From the NCBI GenBank assembly GCA_039636865.1, contig CP144172.1, positions 2,046,001-2,110,000 on the forward strand: a DNA stretch of 64,000 nucleotides. Reading direction: 5' to 3'. Shown piece after piece: positions 31,940 through 64,000 of this stretch. Positions within the stretch are counted from its first letter, which is position 1, and the number at the start of each line of letters is the position of its first letter. Made by a program: the position numbers and the translations under genes. The stretch comes from Dermatophilaceae bacterium Sec6.4 (lineage in GTDB: Bacteria > Actinomycetota > Actinomycetes > Actinomycetales > Dermatophilaceae). The notes under the pieces were generated by a model. The model saw only the letters and a list, made by a program, of their open reading frames with translations, had not been told where the DNA came from and did not search any database.

Positions 31940-32308
31940 ATGGTGACCCCTCTGCATCAGGTAAAGGCCGAGTTCTTCAAGACCCTCGGCCATCCGCAGC
32001 GAATCCGGGTGTTGGAGGTTCTGTCCGATGGTGAGCACTCAGTGGGCCAGATGCTTCGTGCGATCGAGATCGAGGCCTCGAACCTCTCGCAACAACTGGC
32101 AGTCCTGCGCCGTGCCGGCCTGGTCACGACGCGCAAGGAGGGGTCGACGGTCTACTACTCCCTGGTCAGCAGCCAGATCGCGGACCTGATGGGTGTTGCT
32201 CGCTCGATCTTGACCAGCGTGCTTTCCGAGCAGACCCAGCTGCTCACCACACTCCAGTCTGATGCGGAACCTGCACGTCGCGACACGGTCCGCCGGGGCG
32301 GGTCGTGA
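31940..32308 (+). CDS. ArsR-family regulator heading the Ehr-type operon
   Basis: A 122-residue winged helix-turn-helix protein. Residues 10-90 hold the ArsR fold: FFKTLGHPQRIRVLEVLSDG, HSVGQMLRAIEIEASNLSQQ (recognition helix), LAVLRRAGLVTTRKEGSTVY. No metal-binding Cys pair (CVC type) is present in the recognition helix, so it is not a classical metal sensor. Gene order (ArsR, then hydrogenase-like genes) matches M. tuberculosis Rv0081-Rv0087, where Rv0081 is a hypoxia-linked regulator. Its stop overlaps the next start as GTGA, and GGGAGG precedes its ATG. Confidence 0.92.
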   Translation: MVTPLHQVKAEFFKTLGHPQRIRVLEVLSDGEHSVGQMLRAIEIEASNLSQQLAVLRRAGLVTTRKEGSTVYYSLVSSQIADLMGVARSILTSVLSEQTQLLTTLQSDAEPARRDTVRRGGS

Positions 32309-32796
32309 GAGATCTGCTGCGCCTGGTCCACCGGACCGGACGGATAGCGGAACCGGCGCCGCCAAGGCCCCCGGTCGCCAGAGGAAACAGCAGCGCCGAC
32401 GCTGTTTTCGGTGGCTCGATCCAGGTGCGGCACGTGGATGCGGGCTCCTGCAACGGATGCGAGATCGAGATCGCGTCGGCCTTCGGACCCGTCTACGACC
32501 TGGAGCGGTACGGCGTGCGACTGGTGGCCTCACCTCGGCACGCGGACGTCCTGCTGGTCACCGGGCCGGTAACCCGCAACATGGTGGATCCGCTCATCAA
32601 GGCCTATGAGGCGATGCCGTCGCCGAAGCGCGTCGTCGCTCTGGGTGACTGCGCGCGCGACTGTGGGATCTTCGCGACCGCCTACGGGGTGCTGGGGGCG
32701 GTCAGCGATTTCGTCCCTGTTGACATCACCATCGCGGGGTGCCCACCCGAGCCTGAAGTCATCATCGCCGCGCTGCGCGGGTTGAGCGGCCGATGA
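32305..32796 (+). CDS. NuoB/HycG-like iron-sulfur small subunit of Ehr-type complex
   Basis: A 163-residue homologue of the hydrogenase-3/complex I small subunit. Cluster N2-type cysteines are at about 49, 52 (DAGSCNGCEIEI), 116 (ALGDCARDCGIF) and 146 (IAGCPPEPEVI), so one 4Fe-4S cluster can form. It would sit at the membrane surface next to the large subunit. It overlaps its neighbours by four bases on both sides. The counterpart in M. tuberculosis is Rv0082. No HycB/HycF-type ferredoxin gene is in the operon, so this is the only iron-sulfur protein encoded here. Confidence 0.88.
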   Translation: MRDLLRLVHRTGRIAEPAPPRPPVARGNSSADAVFGGSIQVRHVDAGSCNGCEIEIASAFGPVYDLERYGVRLVASPRHADVLLVTGPVTRNMVDPLIKAYEAMPSPKRVVALGDCARDCGIFATAYGVLGAVSDFVPVDITIAGCPPEPEVIIAALRGLSGR

Positions 32797-34856
32797 GCCT
32801 GATCGCATCCGGTCTTCTGCTTGTCGCGGGCGCCACAGCCCTGGCATGCGCGGGTGCGGCCTTGGCCTCACGCATTTCGCACCGGTGGCGGCCACTTCTC
32901 TCGGGGGCGCTGACCTGTCTGGTCGGCCTCGGCGGCGTACTCGCCGGCATGGGTGCGCTGAGTGGCGCGTCGTGGTCGGTGACTATGCCGCGCCTGCTGC
33001 CGTTGAGCCAGGCGGTGCTCGTGGTCGACCCGTTGGCTGGGCTCTTCATGACCCTGGTGGGTGTCGTCGCCATCGCGGCGGGCATCTACAGCGTCGGTTA
33101 CCCCCATCCGCACGGCGATGAACATAAGGCTGCCGAAGGGGTCGGGTCGCGGACCGTGCAGGCAGCCCTGCCAGTTTTCGTGGCCGCTATGGTGGCCGTT
33201 CCCGCGGCCGGGAACGTGACGACCTTCCTGGTGATGTGGGAAGTGATGGCGCTGGCTTCGCTGGTGCTCGTGCTCGCCGAGCACCGGGCGCGACCCGAAG
33301 TGGGCCAGGCCGGGGTCTGGTACGCGGGAATGACCCACGCCGGCCTCGTGGCCATCCTGCTCGGCCTTGTAGTGTTCGCGAACGCTGCCGGCACTGAGTC
33401 GTTCGCAGGGATGCGGGCGGCGTCCTCGGGCCTGTCGTCGAGCACGCGTTCGCTGGTGTTCCTGCTCGTGTTCGTCGGGTTCGGGTCGAAAGCCGGGCTG
33501 GTGCCGCTACATGTCTGGCTGCCGCGAGCCCATCCCGAGGCACCGAGTTACGTCTCGGCGCTGATGTCCGCGGCGATGGTCAACCTGGGGCTGTACGGCG
33601 TGTTGCGGGTCGGGTTCGATCTGCTCGGTGGCGGCCAGCGGTGGTGGTGGATCCTGGTCCTCGCCGTGGGTGCGCTCTCCGCGTTGTACGGGGTCCTGCA
33701 GGCCGGGGCGGCCACCGATCTCAAGCGGCTGCTGGCGTACTCGACCACCGAGAACATGGGCCTGATCTTCATCGGTGTGGGTGCCGCCGGCATGTTCGCC
33801 GCCGCGGACAACGCGACGCTGGCCAGCCTCCTGATGATCGCTGCCCTGTTGCACACGGTGAACCACGCGGGTTTCAAGACGTTGTTGTTCCTGGGCGCCG
33901 GGGCTGTTCTGCGTAGCACCGGGCTGCGCGATCTGGACAAGATGGGTGGCCTCGCACACCGGATGCCGGCCACCGCCCTGCTCTTCGGGCTCGGTGCGCT
34001 CGGCGCCTCGGGCCTGCCCCCGGGCAACGGATTCGTCTCCGAATGGTTGCTTCTGCAGGGGCTGATCCACAGCCTGTCGCCATCCGGCTCGCCCGATGTC
34101 GCCACGGCCATCGCCATGCCGCTCGCCGTGGGCGCCGTCGCACTGACCGCCGGACTCGGTGTCGCCATGTTCGTGAAGGCTTTCGGGGTGGGGTTCCTGG
34201 CTCGGCCACGATCGGCCGAGGCGGCCGCAGCCACCGAGGTCCCTCGCACCATGCGTGCGGGCATGGTGCTCGCAGCGGTGTTCTGCGCGATCCTGGCGCT
34301 GGCGCCGCTGGCCCTGGTCCGCTCACTCCAGCGGGCGCTGCGCGCGCTGCCCTCCATCAGGCAGGAACGACCTGTTCACGGTGCCCTGGAACTGCAACTG
34401 TCGGGCATCCGAGGGTCGATGTCCCCGGTACTCATCGCGCTCGCCCTGACCGGGGGAGCGCTGCTCATTGCGTTTCTGGTGCGCCGTACAAGTGGTCAGC
34501 AGCGACGTACTGCTCTGGTCTGGGGGTGTGGAGGCACCCGACTGAGCCCGCGCATGCAGTACACCGCCACGGCGTATGCCGAGCCACTCACCCGGGTCTT
34601 CGACGACGTGCTCGGTCCCGAGCAGGACATTGACGTCACCCATCACGCCGAGTCGTCCTATCTCGTGCAGAGCATCCACTATCGCCAGCGCGTCGCCGAC
34701 CGCATCGAGAATCGTCTCTATCCGCCCCTGTTCGCTGCGGCATTGTGGTGGGCGACCGTGGCACGACGCCTGCAGAACGGCAGCGTGCACCGATACCTCG
34801 CGTACGGACTGGTGGGTCTGCTGGTCGTGCTGATCGTGGTCGGGGTGTCGTGGTGA
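32793..34856 (+). CDS. Proton-pumping antiporter-like subunit (HyfB/NuoL-like)
   Basis: A 687-residue integral membrane protein of the NADH dehydrogenase/Mrp antiporter family. The core of about 14 helices includes VTTFLVMWEVMALASLVLVL (near residue 142; conserved Glu), GFGSKAGLVPLHVWLPRAHP (near 227; conserved Lys), LLAYSTTENMGLIFIG (near 313) and LHTVNHAGFKTLLFLGAGAV (near 353). A long C-terminal extension (about 545-687) ends in one more helix, as in HyfB proteins. It is likely an ion-translocating arm of the complex. It overlaps the next gene by GTGA. Confidence 0.9.
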   Translation: MSLIASGLLLVAGATALACAGAALASRISHRWRPLLSGALTCLVGLGGVLAGMGALSGASWSVTMPRLLPLSQAVLVVDPLAGLFMTLVGVVAIAAGIYSVGYPHPHGDEHKAAEGVGSRTVQAALPVFVAAMVAVPAAGNVTTFLVMWEVMALASLVLVLAEHRARPEVGQAGVWYAGMTHAGLVAILLGLVVFANAAGTESFAGMRAASSGLSSSTRSLVFLLVFVGFGSKAGLVPLHVWLPRAHPEAPSYVSALMSAAMVNLGLYGVLRVGFDLLGGGQRWWWILVLAVGALSALYGVLQAGAATDLKRLLAYSTTENMGLIFIGVGAAGMFAAADNATLASLLMIAALLHTVNHAGFKTLLFLGAGAVLRSTGLRDLDKMGGLAHRMPATALLFGLGALGASGLPPGNGFVSEWLLLQGLIHSLSPSGSPDVATAIAMPLAVGAVALTAGLGVAMFVKAFGVGFLARPRSAEAAAATEVPRTMRAGMVLAAVFCAILALAPLALVRSLQRALRALPSIRQERPVHGALELQLSGIRGSMSPVLIALALTGGALLIAFLVRRTSGQQRRTALVWGCGGTRLSPRMQYTATAYAEPLTRVFDDVLGPEQDIDVTHHAESSYLVQSIHYRQRVADRIENRLYPPLFAAALWWATVARRLQNGSVHRYLAYGLVGLLVVLIVVGVSW

Positions 34857-35812
34857 ACGGGGCCACGACGTCATGGTCGGTGCTCGGCGTGGTCGTGCAG
34901 GTCATGCTGGTCATCGCCGGCGCCCCGGTCCTGGTTGCGCTGATGCGTCAGGTCCGGGCGAGGCTCGAGGGTCGCGTCGGCGCCGGACTGGGGCAGCCTT
35001 GGCGGGACTTGCGCAAGCAGCTGAGGAAAGAATCCATCGCGCCCGACGGTTCGACGATGGTTTTCGCCGCTGCGCCGGCCGTGGCGCTGAGTTCCATGGT
35101 GCTGATCGTGTGCGCCGCCCCGTTCATCACGACGACCTCCCCGCTCGACGGGGTGGCAGACCTGTTCGCGGTGGTGTCGTTGTTGCTGGTCGCGTCGATC
35201 GCTTTGGCCTTGGCCGGGCTCGACACCGGTTCGGCCTTCGGTGGCATGGGATCGAGCCGCACTGTCACCGTGGCCGCACTGGCCGAGCCGACGCTACTGG
35301 TGGCGGGCTTCGCTCTTTCGGTGCAGGTCGGGTCCTCGAACCTGGCAAGCCTGGTCGAGCACGGCCAGCGGGTACCAGGCACGATCTTGTCGCCGGCCAG
35401 CCTGCTGGCTGCGGTCGCGCTGTGGATCGTCGTCGTTGCCGAAGCTGGTCGACTGCCCGTGGACAACCCGTCGACCCACCTCGAGCTGACCATGATTCAC
35501 GAGGCGACGATCCTGGAGTACGCGGGCCCAGACCTCGCCATGGTGGAGCTTGGTTCCGCCATGCGTCTGGCGGTCCTGCTCGGTCTATGGGGAAACCTGT
35601 TCCTGCCCTGGGGAGTGGCGACCACAGCCGGACCCGGCACGCTGGCTCTCGGTGCCATCGTCTTCGTCGTCAAGGTCGCTGCCCTCGGTGCTGTTCTTGC
35701 CGCGAGCGAGGTCTTCATGGCGAAGTGGCGTCTTTTCCGGGTGCCCGAACTGCTCGCGGGATCCTTCCTCTTCAGTGTCCTGGCCGTCTCGTCCTCCTTC
35801 TTCCTCTCATGA
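34853..35812 (+). CDS. hycD: HyfC/HycD (NuoH-like) membrane subunit
   Basis: A 319-residue membrane protein with about eight helices, homologous to complex I NuoH and hydrogenase HycD. Signature blocks are ARLEGRVGAGLGQPWRDLRK (near residue 36), AEAGRLPVDNPSTHLELTMI (near 199; acidic cluster of the quinone/proton junction region) and EATILEYAGPDLAMVELGSA. It links the soluble small/large subunits to the antiporter-like arm. The GTG at 34853 overlaps the previous stop; an upstream open frame of 36 codons inside the preceding gene is not used. Confidence 0.9.
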   Translation: MNGATTSWSVLGVVVQVMLVIAGAPVLVALMRQVRARLEGRVGAGLGQPWRDLRKQLRKESIAPDGSTMVFAAAPAVALSSMVLIVCAAPFITTTSPLDGVADLFAVVSLLLVASIALALAGLDTGSAFGGMGSSRTVTVAALAEPTLLVAGFALSVQVGSSNLASLVEHGQRVPGTILSPASLLAAVALWIVVVAEAGRLPVDNPSTHLELTMIHEATILEYAGPDLAMVELGSAMRLAVLLGLWGNLFLPWGVATTAGPGTLALGAIVFVVKVAALGAVLAASEVFMAKWRLFRVPELLAGSFLFSVLAVSSSFFLS

Positions 35813-35850
35813 CCTGCCCTCTCACAACCGCCACGGGAAGGAGATAGCTC

Positions 35851-36510
35851 GTGTCCGTCGCGCTGTTTTCACAGCTTCTCTACCTCCTTTGCGGTGGCTT
35901 GCTGCTGTCCTCGGTGCTGATGCTGTGGCGCCGGCAGCTGTCGGCACTGGTCGGCCTGCTGGCCGCCCAGGGTGTGCTGCTGGCGGGGATGGCCGCGCTG
36001 CTGGGGACCCAGGACGGCGGCCTGGAGCTGTACGTGGTCGCTCTGGGCATTCTCGTGCTCAAGGGTGGTGTGCTGCCCGCAGTATTGCGCCGTGTGCTGG
36101 CCAATAGTGGTGCAGCGCGGGAGACGCAGCCACTGGTCAATGTTCCTGCCTCGCTGCTTGCGGCAGCCATGTTGACCCTGCTGGCCTACGCGGTGAGCAG
36201 GCCGCTGGTGGAGCTGGACCCGACGCCGATCACGCACGCGGCGCCGGTCGGTATAGCCATGGTCCTGCTGGGGTTCTTCATGTTGGTCACCCGCCGCCGC
36301 GCACTGTCTCAGGTAGCGGGGTTCCTGCTGCTGGACAACGGCATCGCCGCCACTGCCTTCCTGGTCACGTCGGGGGTTCCGTTGATCGTCGAACTCGCAG
36401 TGTCGATGGACCTGCTGCTGGTCGTTCTGGTCCTGCAGGTCCTGACTGTCCGGCTCAGAACGGCCTTCGGCGACACGGACATCGGCGAACTACGGGAGCT
36501 GAAGGACTGA
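35851..36510 (+). CDS. HyfE-like membrane subunit
   Basis: A 219-residue hydrophobic protein with about seven helices, of the HyfE/NuoK-related type (hycP in M. tuberculosis). Clear blocks are LCGGLLLSSVLMLWRRQLSA and FFMLVTRRRALSQVAGFLLL, the second followed by DNGIAATAFLV. A GGAAGGAG ribosome site precedes the GTG start after a 38-base gap, the largest in the operon. The stop overlaps the next ATG by one base. It would form part of the membrane arm. Confidence 0.85.
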   Translation: MSVALFSQLLYLLCGGLLLSSVLMLWRRQLSALVGLLAAQGVLLAGMAALLGTQDGGLELYVVALGILVLKGGVLPAVLRRVLANSGAARETQPLVNVPASLLAAAMLTLLAYAVSRPLVELDPTPITHAAPVGIAMVLLGFFMLVTRRRALSQVAGFLLLDNGIAATAFLVTSGVPLIVELAVSMDLLLVVLVLQVLTVRLRTAFGDTDIGELRELKD

Positions 36511-38024
36511 TGCTCGAGATGGTCGGGGCTCCCGCCACCGGACAGGGCGGTTTTGTGGACGCCCTGCTCATCGGGGCTCCCGTGGCTGCCCCCGCACTCG
36601 CCGCCGTGGTGGCCCTCGCTCGCCGTACGCCGAGCCGCGCGACCGGCTGGATGAGCGTCGCTGCCGCATTCGTCATCCTGGGCAGTGGCGTGTTCGCTGC
36701 GGTGCTCACCGTCGACGGGTACGCCCTGAGAGCCGGTTCCCTGCTGCGCGTGGACGCCCTCTCCGCCGTGATGCTGATCGTGATCGGATCGGTGAGCGTG
36801 ATCGCAACCTGGGCCAACGTCGACTTCGTGGGCAACGAACTGGCCTCCGGGAAGGCATCGAGCGCCGACCTTCGTCGCTACACCACTCTCGTGCCGACGT
36901 TCCTGGCGGCGATGGTCCTGGCGGTGTTGGCCAACAACCTCGGACTTCTGTGGGCTGCGGTCGAGGCGACCACCATCGTCACCGCGTTCCTCGTCGGCCA
37001 CCGACGCAGCCGCGGCTCGGTCGAGGCGACCTGGAAGTACGTGATCATCTGCTCGGTCGGGATCGCACTGGCCTACCTCGGCACCATCCTCGTCTACTAC
37101 GCGGCACAGCAGACCACCATTCCTGCCGGTGCCGCGCTGGAGTGGGATCAGCTGGTCGCCCACTCGACCGAGCTCGACCCAGGCGTGATGCGGATCGCGT
37201 TCGCGCTGCTGTTGATCGGGTACGGCGCGAAAGCAGGCATGATCCCGCTGCACAGCTGGCTACCGGATGCGCACAGCCAGGCCCCGGCCCCGGTCTCCGC
37301 ACTGATGTCCGGCGTCCTGTTGCCGGTGGCGGTCTACGCCCTGATCCGCTACCGGGTGATCGCCGTGCACAGCTTGGACCCGTCGTTCGTGCGGGCGCTC
37401 CTGCTGGTGGTGGCGCTGGCGTCGCTGGTCCTGGCGACCTCGCTGATCATCGCCCAAGGCAACTACAAGCGGCTGCTCGCCTATTCGAGCATCGAACACA
37501 TGAGCCTGATCGTGATCGGTCTGGCGATCGGCACGCCATTGGCGATCGCTGCGAGCCTGCTGCATATCATGGGACACGGGCTCGGCAAGGCTGTGCTTTT
37601 CTGCAGCGCCGGTCAGGTGCTACTTCTCGAGGGGACCTCCAAGATCGCCGGCGTCCGTGGGATCCTCGCGCGACGCCCGGTGCTCGCTGCTGTGTTCGGC
37701 GTAGGTTTCCTGGCACTGCTCGGTCTGCCGCCGTTCAGCCTCTTCGTCAGTGAGCTCGGTCTGGCGCGCGCCGCGTCCGCCGATGGCCTCACCTGGGTGA
37801 TTGCCCTGGCCCTGATGATGGTGGTGATCGTCTTCGTAGCCATCACCACCCAGTTGGCTCCGATGATCCTGGGGTCGGGCAGTGGCTCGAGCGCTGCTGG
37901 GCGCGATACCGGCTCCACCACCCCGTTGGTCGTGGGCCTGGTGGCGCTGGCCACATTGGGCATCGTTGCCTGGCCGGTGGACCAGCTCCTGCATGCTGCC
38001 AGTCTGATCGCGGGCACACCGTGA
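36510..38024 (+). CDS. Second antiporter-like subunit (HyfF/NuoN-like)
   Basis: A 504-residue membrane protein with about 14 helices of the proton-conducting family (hycQ in M. tuberculosis). Blocks: NNLGLLWAAVEATTIVTAFL (near residue 139; conserved Glu), GYGAKAGMIPLHSWLPDAHS (near 237; conserved Lys), LLAYSSIEHMSLIVIG (near 324) and ILHIMGHGLGKAVLFCSAGQ-like segment near 350. With the HyfB-like subunit it gives two potential ion channels. It overlaps the large-subunit gene by GTGA. Confidence 0.9.
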   Translation: MLEMVGAPATGQGGFVDALLIGAPVAAPALAAVVALARRTPSRATGWMSVAAAFVILGSGVFAAVLTVDGYALRAGSLLRVDALSAVMLIVIGSVSVIATWANVDFVGNELASGKASSADLRRYTTLVPTFLAAMVLAVLANNLGLLWAAVEATTIVTAFLVGHRRSRGSVEATWKYVIICSVGIALAYLGTILVYYAAQQTTIPAGAALEWDQLVAHSTELDPGVMRIAFALLLIGYGAKAGMIPLHSWLPDAHSQAPAPVSALMSGVLLPVAVYALIRYRVIAVHSLDPSFVRALLLVVALASLVLATSLIIAQGNYKRLLAYSSIEHMSLIVIGLAIGTPLAIAASLLHIMGHGLGKAVLFCSAGQVLLLEGTSKIAGVRGILARRPVLAAVFGVGFLALLGLPPFSLFVSELGLARAASADGLTWVIALALMMVVIVFVAITTQLAPMILGSGSGSSAAGRDTGSTTPLVVGLVALATLGIVAWPVDQLLHAASLIAGTP

Positions 38025-39520
38025 CCTGCCGCCGCCACCATGATCGCCACCAGGTCGAGGTGACCGTGGAGAGCCTGAGCGTCCGGGCACAGGAGTTACT
38101 TGACGACGGTTTCCGCCTGGCTCTGATCGCCGCCCACGAGGACGAGGACCGTTTCCGCATCGTCTACGTCTTCATCGCGCCCGGACCCGACCGCCGCGTC
38201 GAGCTCGTGCTGCCCACCGACCGCGAAGCACCCTCGATTCCCAGCCTGGCGGGGCTATCGTTCCCGGCGGGACGTTTCGAGCGGGAAATGCGGGACCTCT
38301 ACGGCATTACGCCGATCGGTCATCCCCTGCCACGGCGCCTGGTGCGACACCAGCACTGGCCGCAGGGCTGGTACCCGATGCGCAGTGACGCCGGCCCGCC
38401 CCCACCATTCGGCTCGACGGAGGAGCCGTTCCCCTTCCTCACAGTGCAGGGCCCAGGTGTCTTCGAGATCCCCGTCGGACCCATCCACGCCGGCCTCATC
38501 GAACCTGGCCACTTCCGACTCTCGGTCGTGGGGGAGACCGTCCTCAAGCTCAAGGCCCGCCTGTGGTTCGTGCACCGAGGCATCGAAAAACTCGCTGAGG
38601 GACGTGACCTGCCAGACGTGGTGCCGCTGATGGAACGGGTATCGGGCGACACGGCTGTCGGGCACGCGTTGGCGTACTGCCTCGCCGTTGAAGAGGCCAT
38701 GGGCTGGCCGGTGCCGGCCCAGGCCCAGGTGACGCGCGCAGCGCTGTTGGAGCTGGAGCGGCTCTACAACCACGTCACGGATATCGGTGCCTTGTGCAAT
38801 GACGCTGGTCAAGGGTTGTTGAACACCCATGCCCAGCGGGTCCGGGAGCGGCTGCTGCGGCTGAATGCCGTCGTCACCGGCCACCGGCTGCTGAGGGGCG
38901 CGGTCTTCCCCGGAGGGGTGCATATCCGGGACTGGCCGGATGCGCGCGAATTACTCGAGATCGCCGCCGATGTCGCCGAGATCGTCGATCTCGCGTTGAC
39001 CCACAGCGGCGTCCACGACCGCTTCGCCGGCACTGCGGTCCTCACCGCCGCACAGGTCAGGGACATCGGTGCGGTTGGTTACGCCGCCCGCGCGAGCGGC
39101 GTCGATCTCGATGCCCGCCGTGATCACCCTTTTACCGAGGCGACATCCGCGTTGACGGTGGTCACTGAAACGGGCGGGGACGTGCTGGCCCGGTTTATGG
39201 TGCGAGCCAGGGAGGTCCAGGCATCAATGGCCGTGCTGTTGCCGCTGATCGACGACGTCAGTGCCGGGGAGGTCGCGTGCGACAAACCCGTGCGGCAGCT
39301 TCGAGGAGCGTCCGGGTTGGGTCTGGTCGAGGGGTGGCGCGGCACCATCGCCCACCGCGTCGAGATCGGTCCGGACCATCGTCTGAGCCGGCTCAAGATT
39401 GTGGACCCGTCGTTCCTCAACTGGCCGGCGGTGCCCCTCGCGATGGTGGATACCATCGTCCCTGACTTCCCCCTGACCAACAAGAGTTTCAACCTCTCCT
39501 ACGCAGGCAACGATCTATGA
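38021..39520 (+). CDS. NuoCD/HycE-like large subunit lacking NiFe cysteines
   Basis: A 499-residue fusion of a NuoC-like N-terminus (about 1-140, with FEREMRDLYGITPIGHPLPR) and a NuoD/hydrogenase-large-subunit domain (about 145-499, with RHFRLS-like PGHFRLSVVGETVLKLKARL and FVHRGIEKLAEGR). In true group 4 hydrogenases the N-terminal motif is RVCGIC; here residues 206-212 are RVSGDTA. The C-terminal DPCxxC is DPSFLNW (462-468). All four nickel-iron ligands are therefore absent, as in complex I and in Ehr complexes. It is the last gene of the operon. Its reaction is unknown; quinone binding in the vacated cavity is one option. Confidence 0.9.
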   Translation: MTCRRHHDRHQVEVTVESLSVRAQELLDDGFRLALIAAHEDEDRFRIVYVFIAPGPDRRVELVLPTDREAPSIPSLAGLSFPAGRFEREMRDLYGITPIGHPLPRRLVRHQHWPQGWYPMRSDAGPPPPFGSTEEPFPFLTVQGPGVFEIPVGPIHAGLIEPGHFRLSVVGETVLKLKARLWFVHRGIEKLAEGRDLPDVVPLMERVSGDTAVGHALAYCLAVEEAMGWPVPAQAQVTRAALLELERLYNHVTDIGALCNDAGQGLLNTHAQRVRERLLRLNAVVTGHRLLRGAVFPGGVHIRDWPDARELLEIAADVAEIVDLALTHSGVHDRFAGTAVLTAAQVRDIGAVGYAARASGVDLDARRDHPFTEATSALTVVTETGGDVLARFMVRAREVQASMAVLLPLIDDVSAGEVACDKPVRQLRGASGLGLVEGWRGTIAHRVEIGPDHRLSRLKIVDPSFLNWPAVPLAMVDTIVPDFPLTNKSFNLSYAGNDL

Positions 39521-40390: not shown

Positions 40391-40624
40391 TCACCGGTTC
40401 ATGGCCGGCGGTTCATGCTGGCGCCTGCGATGTAGCTCTTGGGTGATGGTCTCTTCTCGTTGCCTCAGTGCGGCGCGGCGGGCAACCCCACCTGGTGAGG
40501 GCCGGTACCCGCTGGCAGCTGCGTCGGCGCTCACGGTGTTCTGCAGCCTGGTCAGATCCTGCAGTAGTTCTCGAATGCTCAGCCCGGTCAGGTCGTTGAC
40601 CTCCGGTGCGCTCAGGGTGCTCAT
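40391..40624 (-). CDS. Hypothetical 77-residue protein
   Basis: A small soluble, helical protein: residues 14-40 read LSIRELLQDLTRLQNTVSAD with heptad-like Leu spacing, and residues 50-70 are Arg/Gln/Glu-rich (VARRAALRQREETITQELHR). I do not recognise a family. Its ATG overlaps the stop of the 37-codon frame at 40621-40734 as ATGA, suggesting coupled translation. Moderately supported by composition and coupling only. Confidence 0.45.
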   Translation of the reverse strand: MSTLSAPEVNDLTGLSIRELLQDLTRLQNTVSADAAASGYRPSPGGVARRAALRQREETITQELHRRRQHEPPAMNR

Positions 40625-40734
40625 CGCGACCTGGTGACCGGGCAACCGTGCAGCGTGAACGCACCCGTTCGCGCACGCCGATGATGGTGGGTCACTGGGT
40701 GAAGGGGAACCGCGTCGCGGTGGAAATTCGTCAT
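40621..40734 (-). CDS. Hypothetical 37-residue leader-like frame
   Basis: A short frame with an excellent ribosome site (AAGGAG six bases before the ATG) that ends overlapping the next start by ATGA. The product is His/Arg-rich (HHHRRARTG) with no known family. It may be a real small protein, a leader peptide, or chance. Confidence 0.35.
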   Translation of the reverse strand: MTNFHRDAVPLHPVTHHHRRARTGAFTLHGCPVTRSR

Positions 40735-40837
40735 AACAGCTCCTTGCATCTGACGACGTGGGTGGGGCGGTGCAAAAGTTGCGTTCCCTGGTGGGAGGCC
40801 GCACTGTTCGGGACCGGTTCGAGCAGATCGGTGGTCG

Positions 40838-41046
40838 TTGCTGACGTCCAGGATCGCGCGAATGTCCATGTTGATCCGGTCGGTCTCGGACAAGGTTTCA
40901 TCCAGGGTGTGCTGGCCGACCACCCGGCCCAGACAGAACAGCACCCCTTCCTCGTACTGCTTCACAATCTTCAGCGCAGTGACCACCACCGCGATGAGGA
41001 GCACGAGGAGGATGACGATGGTCAGGGAAAGAGTGGAAGAAGACAC
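40838..41046 (-). pseudogene. Slipin/stomatin (SPFH) gene relic with internal deletion
   Basis: The frame starts with a membrane helix (TIVILLVLLIAVVVTAL) and the slipin entry motif IVKQYEEGVLFCLGRVV. It then jumps straight to GQHTLDETLSETDRINMDIR and AILDV, a block that in intact slipins lies about 80 residues later. After AILDV the similarity ends. A full slipin has roughly 260 or more residues, so most of the SPFH domain and the C-terminus are gone. No intact copy is in the window. Confidence 0.7.
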
Positions 41047-41388
41047 GAGAACCTACTCAGAGGCAGTGGTGACGTGCGAGGGGGCTTGAGGCTTGTGCCC
41101 CAGCGGCGCGGCGGCGGACGGCCACACCATTCCCGAACTGGCTGAACTGATCAGCAACTCGAACGCTACACCCGAAGGGATGACATCGAGTCCGGCTGCG
41201 GTGAGTGTTGGTGAGCGGCGTCGTCGCCACCATTGATCTGTCGCAACGAGAAGTTCTGGATGCCGGCCAGGGGTGGTTCTCGGTGGTTGGCGGTATCTTT
41301 GAAAAGGACCAGTCTCGCGGCGAGTGTCTCCTACCGGCGTTCCACCGCCAGCTGTGCCCATTGTGTCTCCAGCAAGAGGGGAACGGCA

Positions 41389-42107
41389 ATGAGTGATCAG
41401 CCGCCGCATGTAGGTTCGATCAAGCCAGCCACCGAAACGCAACACCAGCAGATCGACGAAGACGACGCGGATCTACACACCAGCCTCGCCGATCTGGCCG
41501 CGTTGGTGACCAGTTCTCATGGTTTGGATCGGTTACTGGAACTGGTGGCGACGTATGCGGCCAAGGCGATTCCTGGCGCGGATGGTGCGGGGGTGACCTT
41601 GTTGCGGATTGACCGCCCGGATAACAGGGTGCAGGCGTTGGCTGCCAGTGACCCGTTCGTTGCCTAGATCGACCATATTCAGTACGTGACGGTGAACGAG
41701 GGCCCGTGTATTACTGCCGCGTTGGAGGGGCGCACGGTGCGTTCGGGGTCGCTGGGTGGGGAGAAGATGTGGCCTCATTTCGGGCCGCGGGTCGGGCGTC
41801 TGGGTGATGATCACGCCCAGGAGTTGGGTGAGTTGTTTGCCGCACCGGCGGCGGTGCGGTGCACAACGCGCACACCCTGTCTCAGGCGGTTGCGTTGACC
41901 ACCCAGTTACAGACCGCGTTGGCCGACCGGCCTGTCATTGATGAGGCGATCGGGTTGATCCGCAGTCGCACGGGAGTCAGTTCGGTCCAGGCCCGTGAAC
42001 GGTTGCAGACGATGAGCCAGCACGAGCACGTGAAAATGGTCGATATCGCCGCACACATGGTCGATGAAGCGGTACGACGCGCCCGCGCCCGCCACGCGGG
42101 CAGCTGA
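41389..42107 (+). pseudogene. GAF-ANTAR regulator, broken copy
   Basis: Nearly the same as the intact gene at 50341-51147 but with three lesions. A TAG at 41665-41667 replaces the Glu codon after SDPFVA. An in-frame 87-base deletion near 41804 removes the segment between GRLG and DDHAQ in the GAF domain. A one-base deletion near 41857 shifts the frame in the segment before HNAHTLSQAV. The ANTAR part (VIDEAIGLIRSRTGVSSVQA) is still readable in the shifted frame to 42107. The ribosome site GAGGGGAACGGCA is kept. No full-length product is possible. Confidence 0.9.
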
Positions 42108-50340: not shown

Positions 50341-51147
50341 TCACCTGTCGGAGTGGCGAGCGCGGGCGCGTCGTACCGCTTCATCGACCATGTGTGCGGC
50401 GATATCGACCATTTTCACGTGCTCGTGCTGGCTCATCGTCTGCAACCGTTCACGGGCCTGGACCGAACTAACTCCCGTGCGACTGCGGATCAACCCGATC
50501 GCCTCATCAATAACAGGCCGGTCGGCCAACGCGGTCTGTAACTGGGTGGTCAACGCAACCGCCTGAGACAGGGTGTGCGCGTTGTGCACCGCGACCGCCG
50601 CCGGCGCGGCAAACAACTCACCCAACTCCTGGGCGTGATCATCAAAGACGTCCTTACCGCGGGCGTACACATTGATCGCACCCACCACCTGACCGGGAAG
50701 TAGCAACGGCAACGACAACGCACTGTGCACACCCAGGCGCCCGACCCGCGGCCCGAAATGAGGCCACATCTTCTCCCCACCCAGCGACCCCGAACGCACC
50801 GTGCGCCCCTCCAACGCGGCAGTAATACACGGGCCCTCGTTCACCGTCACGTACTGGATATGGTCGATCTCGGCAACGAACGGGTCACTCGCCGCCAACG
50901 CCTGCACCCTGTTATCCGGGCGGTCAACCCGCAACAAGGTCACCCCCGCACCATCCGCGCCAGGAATCGCCTTGGCCGCATACGTCGCCACCAGTTCCAG
51001 TAACCGATCCAAACCATGAGAACTGGTCACCAACGCGGCCAGATCGGCCAGGCTCGACTGCAGATCATTGACGTCGTCCTGAATCTGCTGCTGTTCTGCC
51101 TCCGTCGCTGGTTTCATCGGATCCGTTTGTTGCGGCTTGTCATTCAT
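50341..51147 (-). CDS. GAF-ANTAR regulator (intact paralogue)
   Basis: A 268-residue cytoplasmic regulator. After a Gln/Asp-rich N-terminus and short coiled segment, the GAF domain covers about residues 40-185 (LVATYAAKAIPGADGAGVTL, VNEGPCITAALEGRTVRSGS, GQVVGAINVYARGKDVFDDH). The ANTAR domain covers about 205-262 (VIDEAIGLIRSRTGVSSVQA, RERLQTMSQHEHVKMVDIAA). It likely senses a small molecule or redox state and acts on nascent RNA. The start MNDKPQQ at 51147 is chosen for the GAGGGAACGGCA site, kept in the decayed copy. Upstream frame extensions are not used. Confidence 0.9.
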   Translation of the reverse strand: MNDKPQQTDPMKPATEAEQQQIQDDVNDLQSSLADLAALVTSSHGLDRLLELVATYAAKAIPGADGAGVTLLRVDRPDNRVQALAASDPFVAEIDHIQYVTVNEGPCITAALEGRTVRSGSLGGEKMWPHFGPRVGRLGVHSALSLPLLLPGQVVGAINVYARGKDVFDDHAQELGELFAAPAAVAVHNAHTLSQAVALTTQLQTALADRPVIDEAIGLIRSRTGVSSVQARERLQTMSQHEHVKMVDIAAHMVDEAVRRARARHSDR

Positions 51148-51589
51148 TGCCGTTCCCTCTTGTTGGAGACACATGGGCCACAGATGACGAGATCACGCTC
51201 GGTATGAAAAAGACACTCGCCGCGAAATGGCCCTACTTTGAAGGTACTGCCAGCAGCTGGGAACCACCCCATTCCCCGCATCCGGGGCCCCACCTTGCGC
51301 GAGGTGGCAGGTGGTGAACCCGCCAGTGAACAGGACCGGCCCGGCGGATATGCACATGTCATTCTCCGGCACCGCACGACAGGCATCGCGTGTAGAATTT
51401 GATCTGCTGAACCACTTCAGCAAGTCGAAAGAATCCCGCCGTCCGCTGCTGGATTCTCGGGCATCAGCTCGGTGTCGACAACTCGGTGACCACCCGCTCG
51501 ATCGGGATCATCATGATTGTTCGTTCATCTATTTCCGTTGAATCGTGCCGCGGTTCCGCAGACGCCCCCGACTGTGCGGCAGCGCAGCG
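51148..51589. other. Divergent promoter region of GAF-ANTAR and USP genes
   Basis: The left 220 bases are shared with the decayed block, including TCGCGGCGAGTGTC (in the minus orientation near 51210-51223). The right part shows no clear promoter or ribosome site for the USP gene. Confidence 0.45.
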
Positions 51590-63271: not shown

Positions 63272-64000
63272 CTAGCTGCGGGTGTCGCAGGCACGGGCGT
63301 GTCCTACTGCGTCATCGACCAGGTGTTGCGCGACGTCGATCAGTTTCAGGTACTCGCCGTGACTCACCGCGCGTAACCGTTCGCGTGCCTGTTCCGAAGT
63401 GAGGCCGGTACGGGCACGCATCAGGCCGACCGCCTCGTCGGTGATAAGAGGGGCGGTCAGTGGCGTCTGCAGCCGGGTGGTCAGTGCGATCGCCTGGGTC
63501 AGGGTGTGCGCGTTGTTCAGCGCGACGGCAGCGGGCGCGGTGAACAACTCCGCGAGTTCCTGTGCGTGGTCGTCGAAGACGTCCGTGGCGCGGGCGTACA
63601 CACTGATCGTGCCGATGATCTGGTCTGCTGTCACCAGCGGAAGCGCCATCACGCTCTGGATGCCTGCCCGCCCCGCGCGCGGCCCGAACCGTGGCCACCT
63701 CGGCTCGCTCTCAAGATCGCCCGAACACGCCGTCCGGCCCTCCAGTGCAGTGGTGATGCAGGGGCCCTCATGCACGCTTCGATACTGGATCTGGTCGATC
63801 CTGGCGATGAACGGGTCACTCGCGGCGGACGACTCCACCCGGACGTGCGGGTGATCGACGGACAGCAGCGTCACCACGGCTGCGTCGGCGCCTGGAATGG
63901 TGCGTGCCGCGTAGGTCGCGACCTCGTCGAGCATGTCGGGCAGGCCGCCGGCGCCGGTTACGAGCGCTGCCAACTCGATCAGGCCGGCGTGCAGCGTCTG
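63272..64000 (-). CDS. GAF-ANTAR regulator (partial, continues past the right edge)
   Basis: The frame is open to the window end; an apparent TTG start at 63973 is not used because the homology extends upstream (LQTLHAGLIELAALVTGAGG). The GAF domain (EVATYAARTIPGADAAVVTL, VHEGPCITTALEGRTACSGD, DQIIGTISVYARATDVFDDH) and ANTAR domain (ITDEAVGLMRARTGLTSEQA, RERLRAVSHGEYLKLIDVAQ) are complete at the C-terminal side. It is the fourth copy of this protein type in the window and is convergent with gap. Confidence 0.88.
   Translation of the reverse strand, partial: QTLHAGLIELAALVTGAGGLPDMLDEVATYAARTIPGADAAVVTLLSVDHPHVRVESSAASDPFIARIDQIQYRSVHEGPCITTALEGRTACSGDLESEPRWPRFGPRAGRAGIQSVMALPLVTADQIIGTISVYARATDVFDDHAQELAELFTAPAAVALNNAHTLTQAIALTTRLQTPLTAPLITDEAVGLMRARTGLTSEQARERLRAVSHGEYLKLIDVAQHLVDDAVGHARACDTRS

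What the first reader, a model, noticed from the sequence alone, without database searches (positions are those of the whole stretch)
31940..39520. Ehr-type complex: hydrogenase-like operon whose large subunit has no NiFe ligands
Six overlapping genes encode small and large subunits, a NuoH-like protein, a HyfE-like protein and two antiporter-like arms. In the large subunit, RVCGIC is RVSGDTA (206-212) and DPCxxC is DPSFLNW (462-468), so no nickel site can form. The order ArsR-HycG-HyfB-HycD-HyfE-HyfF-HycE equals M. tuberculosis Rv0081-Rv0087. Such energy-converting hydrogenase-related (Ehr) complexes are known by sequence, but their substrate is not. Only one iron-sulfur cluster site is encoded, with no input module, so the electron donor is open.
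Basis: partly seen in the sequence, partly recalled or inferred. Interest (0 to 1): 0.75.

Follow-up and report, generated by a model that had tools for sequence, protein, structure and literature searches.

The report
Hydrogenase-like ion pump lacking nickel site
An actinobacterium carries a complete hydrogenase-like membrane complex that cannot bind nickel, a known but functionally unsolved kind whose relatives are often labelled formate hydrogenlyase, and elsewhere in its genome a second one that has also lost its last iron-sulfur cluster.

Summary
The operon is real: ArsR, HycG-, HyfB-, HycD-, HyfE-, HyfF- and HycE-like genes at 31940-39520. The large subunit has Ser, Thr, Ser and Gly where HycE has its four nickel-binding Cys. 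The genome has no HypD, and a tree rejects grouping it with HycE-type hydrogenases. It is an Ehr complex, whose function is called unknown in passages I read. It keeps the loop Glu of hydrogenases (E161) and a four-Cys cluster, but lacks complex I's quinone residues His38 and Tyr87. I infer a redox-driven ion pump with an unidentified, probably hydrophobic, acceptor. Lead outside the window: the same genome has a second Ehr whose small subunit lost all four cluster Cys. In 120 homologues three of those positions are almost always Asp/Glu and the fourth mostly Ser/Ala, while the fused ferredoxin's Cys stay. No structure was predicted (tool off).

The parts
31940..32308 (+). ArsR/SmtB-family regulator (122 aa, no Cys), first gene of the operon
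   Evidence: a same-family ArsR directly upstream in 10 of 23 w-type loci, this one included
32305..32796 (+). small subunit (HycG/NuoB-like, 163 aa), no ferredoxin domain
32449..32742 (+). codons of the four Cys (49, 52, 116, 146) of the single N2-type [4Fe-4S] site
   Evidence: aligned with HycG/HyfI
32793..34856 (+). HyfB-like antiporter arm (687 aa); keeps the TM5 Glu, TM7 Lys and TM11 His/His/Lys
34853..35812 (+). HycD/NuoH-like anchor (319 aa from the likely GTG start; the open frame begins at 34745)
35851..36510 (+). HyfE-like membrane subunit (219 aa)
   Evidence: NCBIfam PRK11492, under its cut-off; no Pfam match
36510..38024 (+). HyfF-like antiporter arm (504 aa)
38021..39520 (+). 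large subunit (HycE/NuoCD-like, 499 aa) without nickel ligands
38501..38503 (+). E161, equivalent of HycE Glu193 on the beta1-beta2 loop; kept
   Evidence: alignment; residue roles from PMC9474812 (passages)
38636..38653 (+). RVSGDT (206-211), replacing RVCGIC
39404..39424 (+). DPSFLNW (462-468): motif shared with HycE and NuoD, not the distal nickel site
39491..39517 (+). C-terminal NLSYAGNDL (491-499), true counterpart of the HycE DPCYSC stretch

Best explanation
This is an Ehr (energy-converting hydrogenase-related) complex of an actinobacterial clade here called w-type. Shown by sequence: a HycG-like subunit with a complete four-Cys cluster site, a HycE-like subunit with no nickel site, a HycD anchor and two antiporter arms with their Glu/Lys/His residues, behind an ArsR gene. 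Inferred: an external carrier or an oxidoreductase encoded elsewhere hands electrons straight to the cluster. The cluster reduces an acceptor in the old hydrogenase cavity (by alignment lined by E161, D210, T211, D261, R440, N491, S493, Y494). The change is passed through HycD to the two arms, which move protons (or sodium). The likeliest acceptor is a hydrophobic two-electron carrier such as menaquinone, held differently from complex I. Identity as Ehr about 0.97; redox-driven pumping about 0.6; menaquinone as acceptor about 0.35.
For: Order and subunits. Ligand table: window S/T/S/G against C/C/C/C in hycE, hyfG, L087, L088. Of 151 relatives (the capped best-120 lists, merged), none has RxCGxC or DPCxxC; 9 of 151 keep a Cys at the first position only, and the distal pair is S/G in 145, A/G in 5, S/A in 1. 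Cluster Cys: 4 of 4 in 13 of 13 w-type small subunits aligned. EPGHF with E161 in 143 of 151. Both arms keep the TM7 Lys that HycC lacks (PMC9474812 passages). Tree: 16-row clade 100/100; the window held together with HycE-type rows is rejected, p-AU 3.9e-44; the 16-row clade held with them, p-AU 6.2e-4 (the second group was named after the tree was seen). No HypD in the genome.
Against: The quinone residues of complex I are absent: His38 is I160 and Tyr87 is G209. The canopy Asp of hydrogenases and complex I (HycE Asp529, called strictly conserved in PMC9474812) is N491. The glutamate-rich HycD loop is only partly kept. No electron donor is encoded in the operon, and some sister Ehr clades have altered or lost the cluster ligands, so redox chemistry is not safe for the family as a whole. 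One four-Cys row (L032) falls among the Ehr-like rows at an unsure place. No structure or activity was tested.
Confidence: 0.5

Rival explanations
1. A sulfane-sulfur or other inorganic reductase like MBS of Pyrococcus furiosus, in which the proximal cluster itself is the catalyst.
For: MBS is a solved member of this superfamily without a nickel site and without His38/Tyr87 equivalents (PMC7684303 passages). A P. furiosus-type chain, 6u8y_L, is among the PDB hits; that 6u8y is MBS is recalled.
Against: MBS has a three-Cys cluster and keeps two of the four nickel Cys. The window keeps all four cluster Cys with CxxC spacing and none of the nickel Cys. The MBS paper calls the loop Glu (MbhL E21) absent in MBS, while E161 is kept here; but PMC9474812 says MbsL has one acidic residue on that loop, so this point is weaker.
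Confidence: 0.1
2. Not driven by electrons: an ion antiporter whose hydrogenase-like head only gates or senses redox state.
For: No donor subunit in the operon; sister Ehr complexes changed cluster ligands on four branches of the large-subunit tree, one case possibly a shifted Cys; the antiporter residues are kept.
Against: In the w-type itself all four cluster Cys are kept in 13 of 13, which points to a working electron relay.
Confidence: 0.2
3. A ferredoxin:NAD(P)+ oxidoreductase, as one paper says of Mbx, a hydrogenase-related complex of P. furiosus.
For: Stated for Mbx in PMC6349859 (passage).
Against: No flavin or NAD(P)-binding subunit in the operon; the MBS work read in passages describes a sulfane reductase instead (that Mbx and MBS are the same complex is recalled).
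Confidence: 0.05
4. A true formate hydrogenlyase, as relatives are often annotated.
For: Best PDB match is formate hydrogenlyase subunit 5; a source names a relative 'formate hydrogenase [Cellulomonas sp. WB94]'.
Against: No nickel ligands, no HycB/HycF in the operon, no hycI/hycH label in 21-52 kb, no HypD in the genome.
Confidence: 0.01
5. A decaying hydrogenase operon without function.
For: Lost cofactor site; patchy distribution, 24 of 296 genomes of the class.
Against: All frames are open, the large-subunit matches have no stops inside, and the replaced motifs are conserved among 151 relatives.
Confidence: 0.02

Closest known systems
Ehr complexes (Geobacter GSU0739-45, comammox Nitrospira, Sulfobacillus, Margulisbacteria, CPR)
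   Same: group 4-like large subunit without the nickel Cys (passages in PMC6349859, PMC10284858, PMC4378227, PMC7304191); NuoL/HyfB- and HyfE-like membrane subunits (PMC4378227, PMC7894505); function called unknown or never investigated (PMC10284858, PMC4378227, PMC7894505)
   Different: The window belongs to an actinobacterial clade ending in SYAGNDL, often with ArsR; Ehr sequences from those papers were not in my tree
M. tuberculosis Rv0081-Rv0087 'formate hydrogenlyase'
   Same: same gene list (PMC6901956 Table 1, passage)
   Different: sequences not obtained here; that paper calls it a putative [NiFe]-hydrogenase, which this clade's large subunits do not support
E. coli formate hydrogenlyase / Hyf
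   Same: subunit homology; E161 = HycE Glu193, R440 = Arg478
   Different: no nickel Cys, no HycB/HycF, no maturation protease gene seen; both arms keep the TM7 Lys, which HycC lacks
Respiratory complex I (NuoB/CD/H/L-N)
   Same: fold families; D261 = Nqo4 Asp139 in the alignment
   Different: no His38/Tyr87, no NADH module in the operon; the genome has its own nuo operon (about C2:1.02 Mb)
MBS of Pyrococcus furiosus
   Same: no nickel site, no quinone residues
   Different: MBS has a three-Cys catalytic cluster and two leftover nickel Cys; loop Glu absent by its own paper, one acidic loop residue by PMC9474812

Membership tests
Ehr | homologues of group 4 hydrogenase small, large, HycD and antiporter-like subunits in one cluster | tested here: met
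Ehr | both nickel-binding motifs of the large subunit lost | tested here: met
   S208, T211, S493, G496
Ehr | clusters with previously published Ehr sequences in a tree | not tested
   published Ehr sequences were not fetched; the 44-row tree holds own-phylum relatives and E. coli references
Ehr | assembled membrane complex | not testable with these tools
   needs purification
[NiFe] hydrogenase group 4 / FHL | RxCGxC and DPCxxC | tested here: not met
[NiFe] hydrogenase group 4 / FHL | Hyp maturation in the genome | tested here: not met
   HypD only: 0 of 1; control rings in 4 of 14 named genomes; other Hyp proteins not sought
Complex I | quinone His38 and Tyr87 of the 49-kDa subunit | tested here: not met
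   I160 and G209
MBS | three-Cys proximal cluster, two nickel Cys kept | tested here: not met
   four cluster Cys, no nickel Cys (MBS facts from PMC7684303 passages)

The most novel reading that the evidence does not exclude
The second Ehr of the same genome (C2:748.2-755.7 kb, outside the window) belongs to a family ('p-type') that has lost both the nickel site and the N2 cluster. The four Cys positions are mostly Asp, Asp/Glu, Asp/Glu and Ser/Ala, while a fused one-cluster ferredoxin and nearly all antiporter residues are kept. It would be a branch of the complex I superfamily in which no electron path reaches the old active site, so ion transport must be driven or gated by something else, or a new carboxylate metal site has replaced the cluster. 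With the w-type (nickel lost, N2 kept) and the sisters with partly changed N2 ligands, it gives a series of stepwise cofactor loss.
Probability: 0.4. Interest if true: 0.85.

Novelty: new member of a known kind. Interest (0 to 1): 0.5.

Why it matters
Ehr complexes are reported from many lineages, and passages read here still call their function unknown. A homologous operon is discussed as formate hydrogenlyase or NiFe hydrogenase in a mycobacterial paper (PMC6901956), which the sequence evidence contradicts for this clade. One genome holds a complex with the cluster and one without, so the same host could show whether electron transfer through N2 is needed for ion pumping in the complex I superfamily.

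Tried and rejected
Quinone-site reading: I first took H185 and D261 as the complex I His-Asp pair. The ungapped alignment with T. thermophilus Nqo4 shows that H185 matches H63, not H38, so this was dropped; only D261 matches D139.

DosR-like box in the window: GGGACNNNNGTCCC with one mismatch gave 2 matches, below the shuffled mean of 6.4. No evidence of DosR control here.

ArsR operator: inverted repeats upstream of the operon gave one short GC palindrome. A dyad count over 32 upstream stretches hardly rose above shuffles. A TTGAAG-gap-CTTCAA element beat all its shuffles in 3 of 32 stretches (L036, L096, L102), but the mean over all 32 was 8.03 against 7.89 in shuffles and the window did not stand out. 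Dropped. Shared k-mers looked like the start of the ArsR gene.

Conserved partner gene: among 23 w-type loci of unequal flank, the most widely shared flanking frames lie antisense to the operon and look like artefacts. Real ones were PEPCK (GTP) in 4 of 23 (L012, L013, L015, L092; Pfam) and a SulP permease in 2 of 23 (L013, L035). In the window's genome the one PEPCK found is far away (C2:113 kb), and only one weak ArsR relative besides this one was found. Left as a lead, not as support.

Print check: searches (open-access PMC only; two found nothing, 6 was swamped by unrelated papers). None of the listings or passages I saw describes N2-less Ehr, but Marreiros 2013 (the paper on Ehr as a missing link) was seen only in reference lists and He 2011 is not held, so absence from print is not claimed.

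Limits: the large-subunit tree has long branches (L032, L031x, L033, NuoD rows). Seven w-type rows (L045, L048, L050-L054) were cut out by their SYAGNDL ending (last 495 residues of the frame), so they are circular evidence for the distal motif; one search shows the same endings by tblastn. In L076-L078 the third cluster Cys may be shifted (Cys two positions either side) rather than lost. Gene picks are a home-made length and GC3 rule. L011 has no small subunit (contig end). The separate ferredoxin of L031 was left out of the small-subunit alignments. N2 states were counted on 31 of the 44 tree rows. The protein searches list only the best 120 of at most 8000 scored. Only 17 window proteins were given to Pfam.
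Full report
WHAT IS THERE. The window lies at C2:2046001-2110000 of a 3.79 Mb genome (99.3% complete). Seven genes on the + strand, 31940-39520, encode ArsR, a HycG/NuoB-like small subunit, HyfB, HycD/NuoH, HyfE, HyfF and a HycE/NuoCD-like large subunit. Small gene overlaps join all but HycD and HyfE, which are 38 bases apart. HycD's open frame begins at 34745, but a GTGA overlap at 34853 gives 319 aa, close to the length in relatives.

THE NICKEL SITE. With E. coli HycE as guide, the four nickel Cys correspond to S208, T211, S493 and G496. That stretch aligns with HycE ATYANW and with PSF of NuoD; the DPCYSC counterpart is the very C-terminus, NLSYAGNDL. Of 151 relatives (the capped best-120 lists, merged), none has RxCGxC or DPCxxC; 9 of 151 keep a single Cys at the first position. 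The genome has four genes that match PF00346 (NuoD, a solitary NuoD-like gene, this one and the second Ehr), none with four Cys at these places, and no HypD (the control rang in 4 of 14 named genomes). In the 16 wider regions compared, hycH/hycI-like genes appear only beside L087 and L088, whose large subunits have all four Cys.

TREE. In a 44-row tree of large subunits, the window sits in a 16-row clade with 100/100 support. The 37 rows that are neither HycE-type (hycE, hyfG, L087, L088) nor NuoD-type split from those seven with 100/100. Forcing the window together with the HycE-type rows is rejected (p-AU 3.9e-44), and so is forcing the whole 16-row clade with them (p-AU 6.2e-4; the second group was named after the tree was seen). 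One row inside the 37, L032, has all four nickel Cys, but its place is open and its branch long. So the tree excludes HycE-type hydrogenases as the nearest kin; it does not show when the nickel site was lost. Published Ehr sequences and other phyla were not included.

RESIDUES OF THE OLD ACTIVE SITE. From the FHL structure paper (PMC9474812, passages), HycE Asp192/Glu193 on the beta1-beta2 loop and canopy Arg478/Asp529 matter. By alignment these are I160/E161, R440 and N491 here: the loop Glu and the Arg are kept, the canopy Asp is Asn. I worked out the match of R440 to Arg478 from a 12-residue offset of the PDB chain. Complex I's His38 and Tyr87 are I160 and G209 (ungapped stretch with 2fug_4; the roles of His38 and Tyr87 are stated in PMC7684303). 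D261 matches Nqo4 Asp139. MBS also lacks His38 and Tyr87 but has a three-Cys catalytic cluster (PMC7684303, passages); the window has four cluster Cys. The two papers differ on the MBS loop acid: absent in PMC7684303, one acidic residue in PMC9474812. So the window matches none of the three characterised active sites.

MEMBRANE PART. Both arms keep the TM5 Glu, the TM7 Lys and the TM11 His/His/Lys; HycC has Leu in place of that Lys (PMC9474812). HycD keeps several but not all of the acids of the E-channel loop. Ion movement is therefore likely; direction and ion are not known.

DISTRIBUTION. Large subunits at E <= 1e-90 occur in 24 of 296 genomes of the class, 19 of 115 genera. Two of the 24 (G114, G201) score much lower; G114 falls outside the 16-row clade in the tree, and G201 was not placed. 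None of the five other listed members of its family has a match. ArsR stands directly upstream on the same strand in 10 of 23 w-type loci, and elsewhere nearby in some others. M. tuberculosis rv0081-rv0087 are listed as regulator, oxidoreductases, HycD, HycP, HycQ, HycE, and called a putative [NiFe]-hydrogenase in the same paper (PMC6901956, passages); passages in PMC5484546 discuss Rv0081-Rv0083 in the hypoxia regulon. I did not obtain those sequences.

HOW IT MOST LIKELY WORKS. Shown: subunits, the single four-Cys site, no nickel site, kept arm residues. Inferred: electrons enter the small-subunit cluster directly from a carrier or an enzyme encoded elsewhere; an acceptor in the old cavity is reduced; the arms pump. 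A hydrophobic acceptor such as menaquinone is my first guess (about 0.35), without the usual quinone residues. Papers suggest formate dehydrogenase partners for other Ehr (PMC6349859) and report raised Ehr on formate in Geobacter (PMC7894505). No formate dehydrogenase appears among the 17 window proteins that I gave to Pfam; the rest of the window was not scanned for one.

THE SECOND EHR. The same genome has another complete cluster at L007 7219-14686 (minus strand; C2:748.2-755.7 kb): HycD, HyfE, HyfF, large subunit, small subunit with a fused single-cluster ferredoxin, HyfB, then a universal stress protein and an MFS gene. Its small subunit has no N2 Cys (D, D, E, A). Among 120 homologues (its own sequence included; the best of 3847 hits) the four positions are D 119/N 1; D 110/E 10; D 107/E 12/A 1; S 65/A 52/N 3, while the four ferredoxin Cys are kept in 119-120 of 120. 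One locus row, L029, has Val at the second place. In 31 tree rows with a small subunit, 18 have four Cys, 7 are partial (CCPS, TCDD, CCCN) and 6 have none; parsimony on the large-subunit tree needs 4 changes, one of which may be a shifted Cys. The p-type was found in 4 of 296 class genomes; G000 and G005 hold both types. Its arms keep the Glu, Lys and His/Lys residues, except that one TM11 His of its HyfB is Gln. Named homologues include Flexivirga, Humibacillus and Mycobacterium heckeshornense.

NOVELTY. The window operon is a new member of a known kind. The p-type is not described in the listings and passages that I saw in ten searches of open-access papers; the original Ehr paper (Marreiros 2013) was not available, so I do not claim it is unpublished.

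Noticed in passing
L007 7219-14686 (minus), own genome C2:748.2-755.7 kb: Second Ehr cluster with neither nickel nor N2 Cys; N2 positions are mostly Asp/Glu and Ser/Ala in 120 homologues while the fused ferredoxin Cys are kept.
   Followed up: partly
L032 3125-10197 (G011:C57): An ArsR-led cluster of similar gene make-up whose large subunit keeps all four nickel Cys (RACAGC, CYAC): a possible intermediate between hydrogenase and Ehr. Its tree place is unsure, and HypD was not sought in that genome.
   Followed up: partly
L083, L085, L084, L089, L076-L078: Other Ehr clades with partly replaced N2 ligands (TCDD, CCCN, CCPS), suggesting repeated change of this cluster.
   Followed up: partly
L012 1859-3760, L013 16257-18086, L015 12077-14044, L092 5054-7153: GTP-type PEPCK lies within the fetched flanks of the Ehr operon in 4 of 23 loci, and SulP permeases in 2 of 23; a possible CO2/bicarbonate link.
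   Followed up: partly
own genome C2:1049-1053 kb (L039) and C2:3666778 (L002): A second nuo-like stretch with NuoB- and NuoH-like genes (the 12 kb were not read further), and a solitary NuoD-like gene far away.
   Followed up: no
window 41233-42107 against 50341-51174 and 63272-63973: By eye, short frames resemble the start of a 277-aa gene at 50341-51174 and look like partial copies; a 141-aa frame at 40621-41046 has no Pfam match. No alignment was run.
   Followed up: no
window 275-28745: A nitrate-reductase-like gene pair (by sequence look only), and a TauE, malate synthase and FMN-dependent dehydrogenase group upstream of the operon.
   Followed up: no
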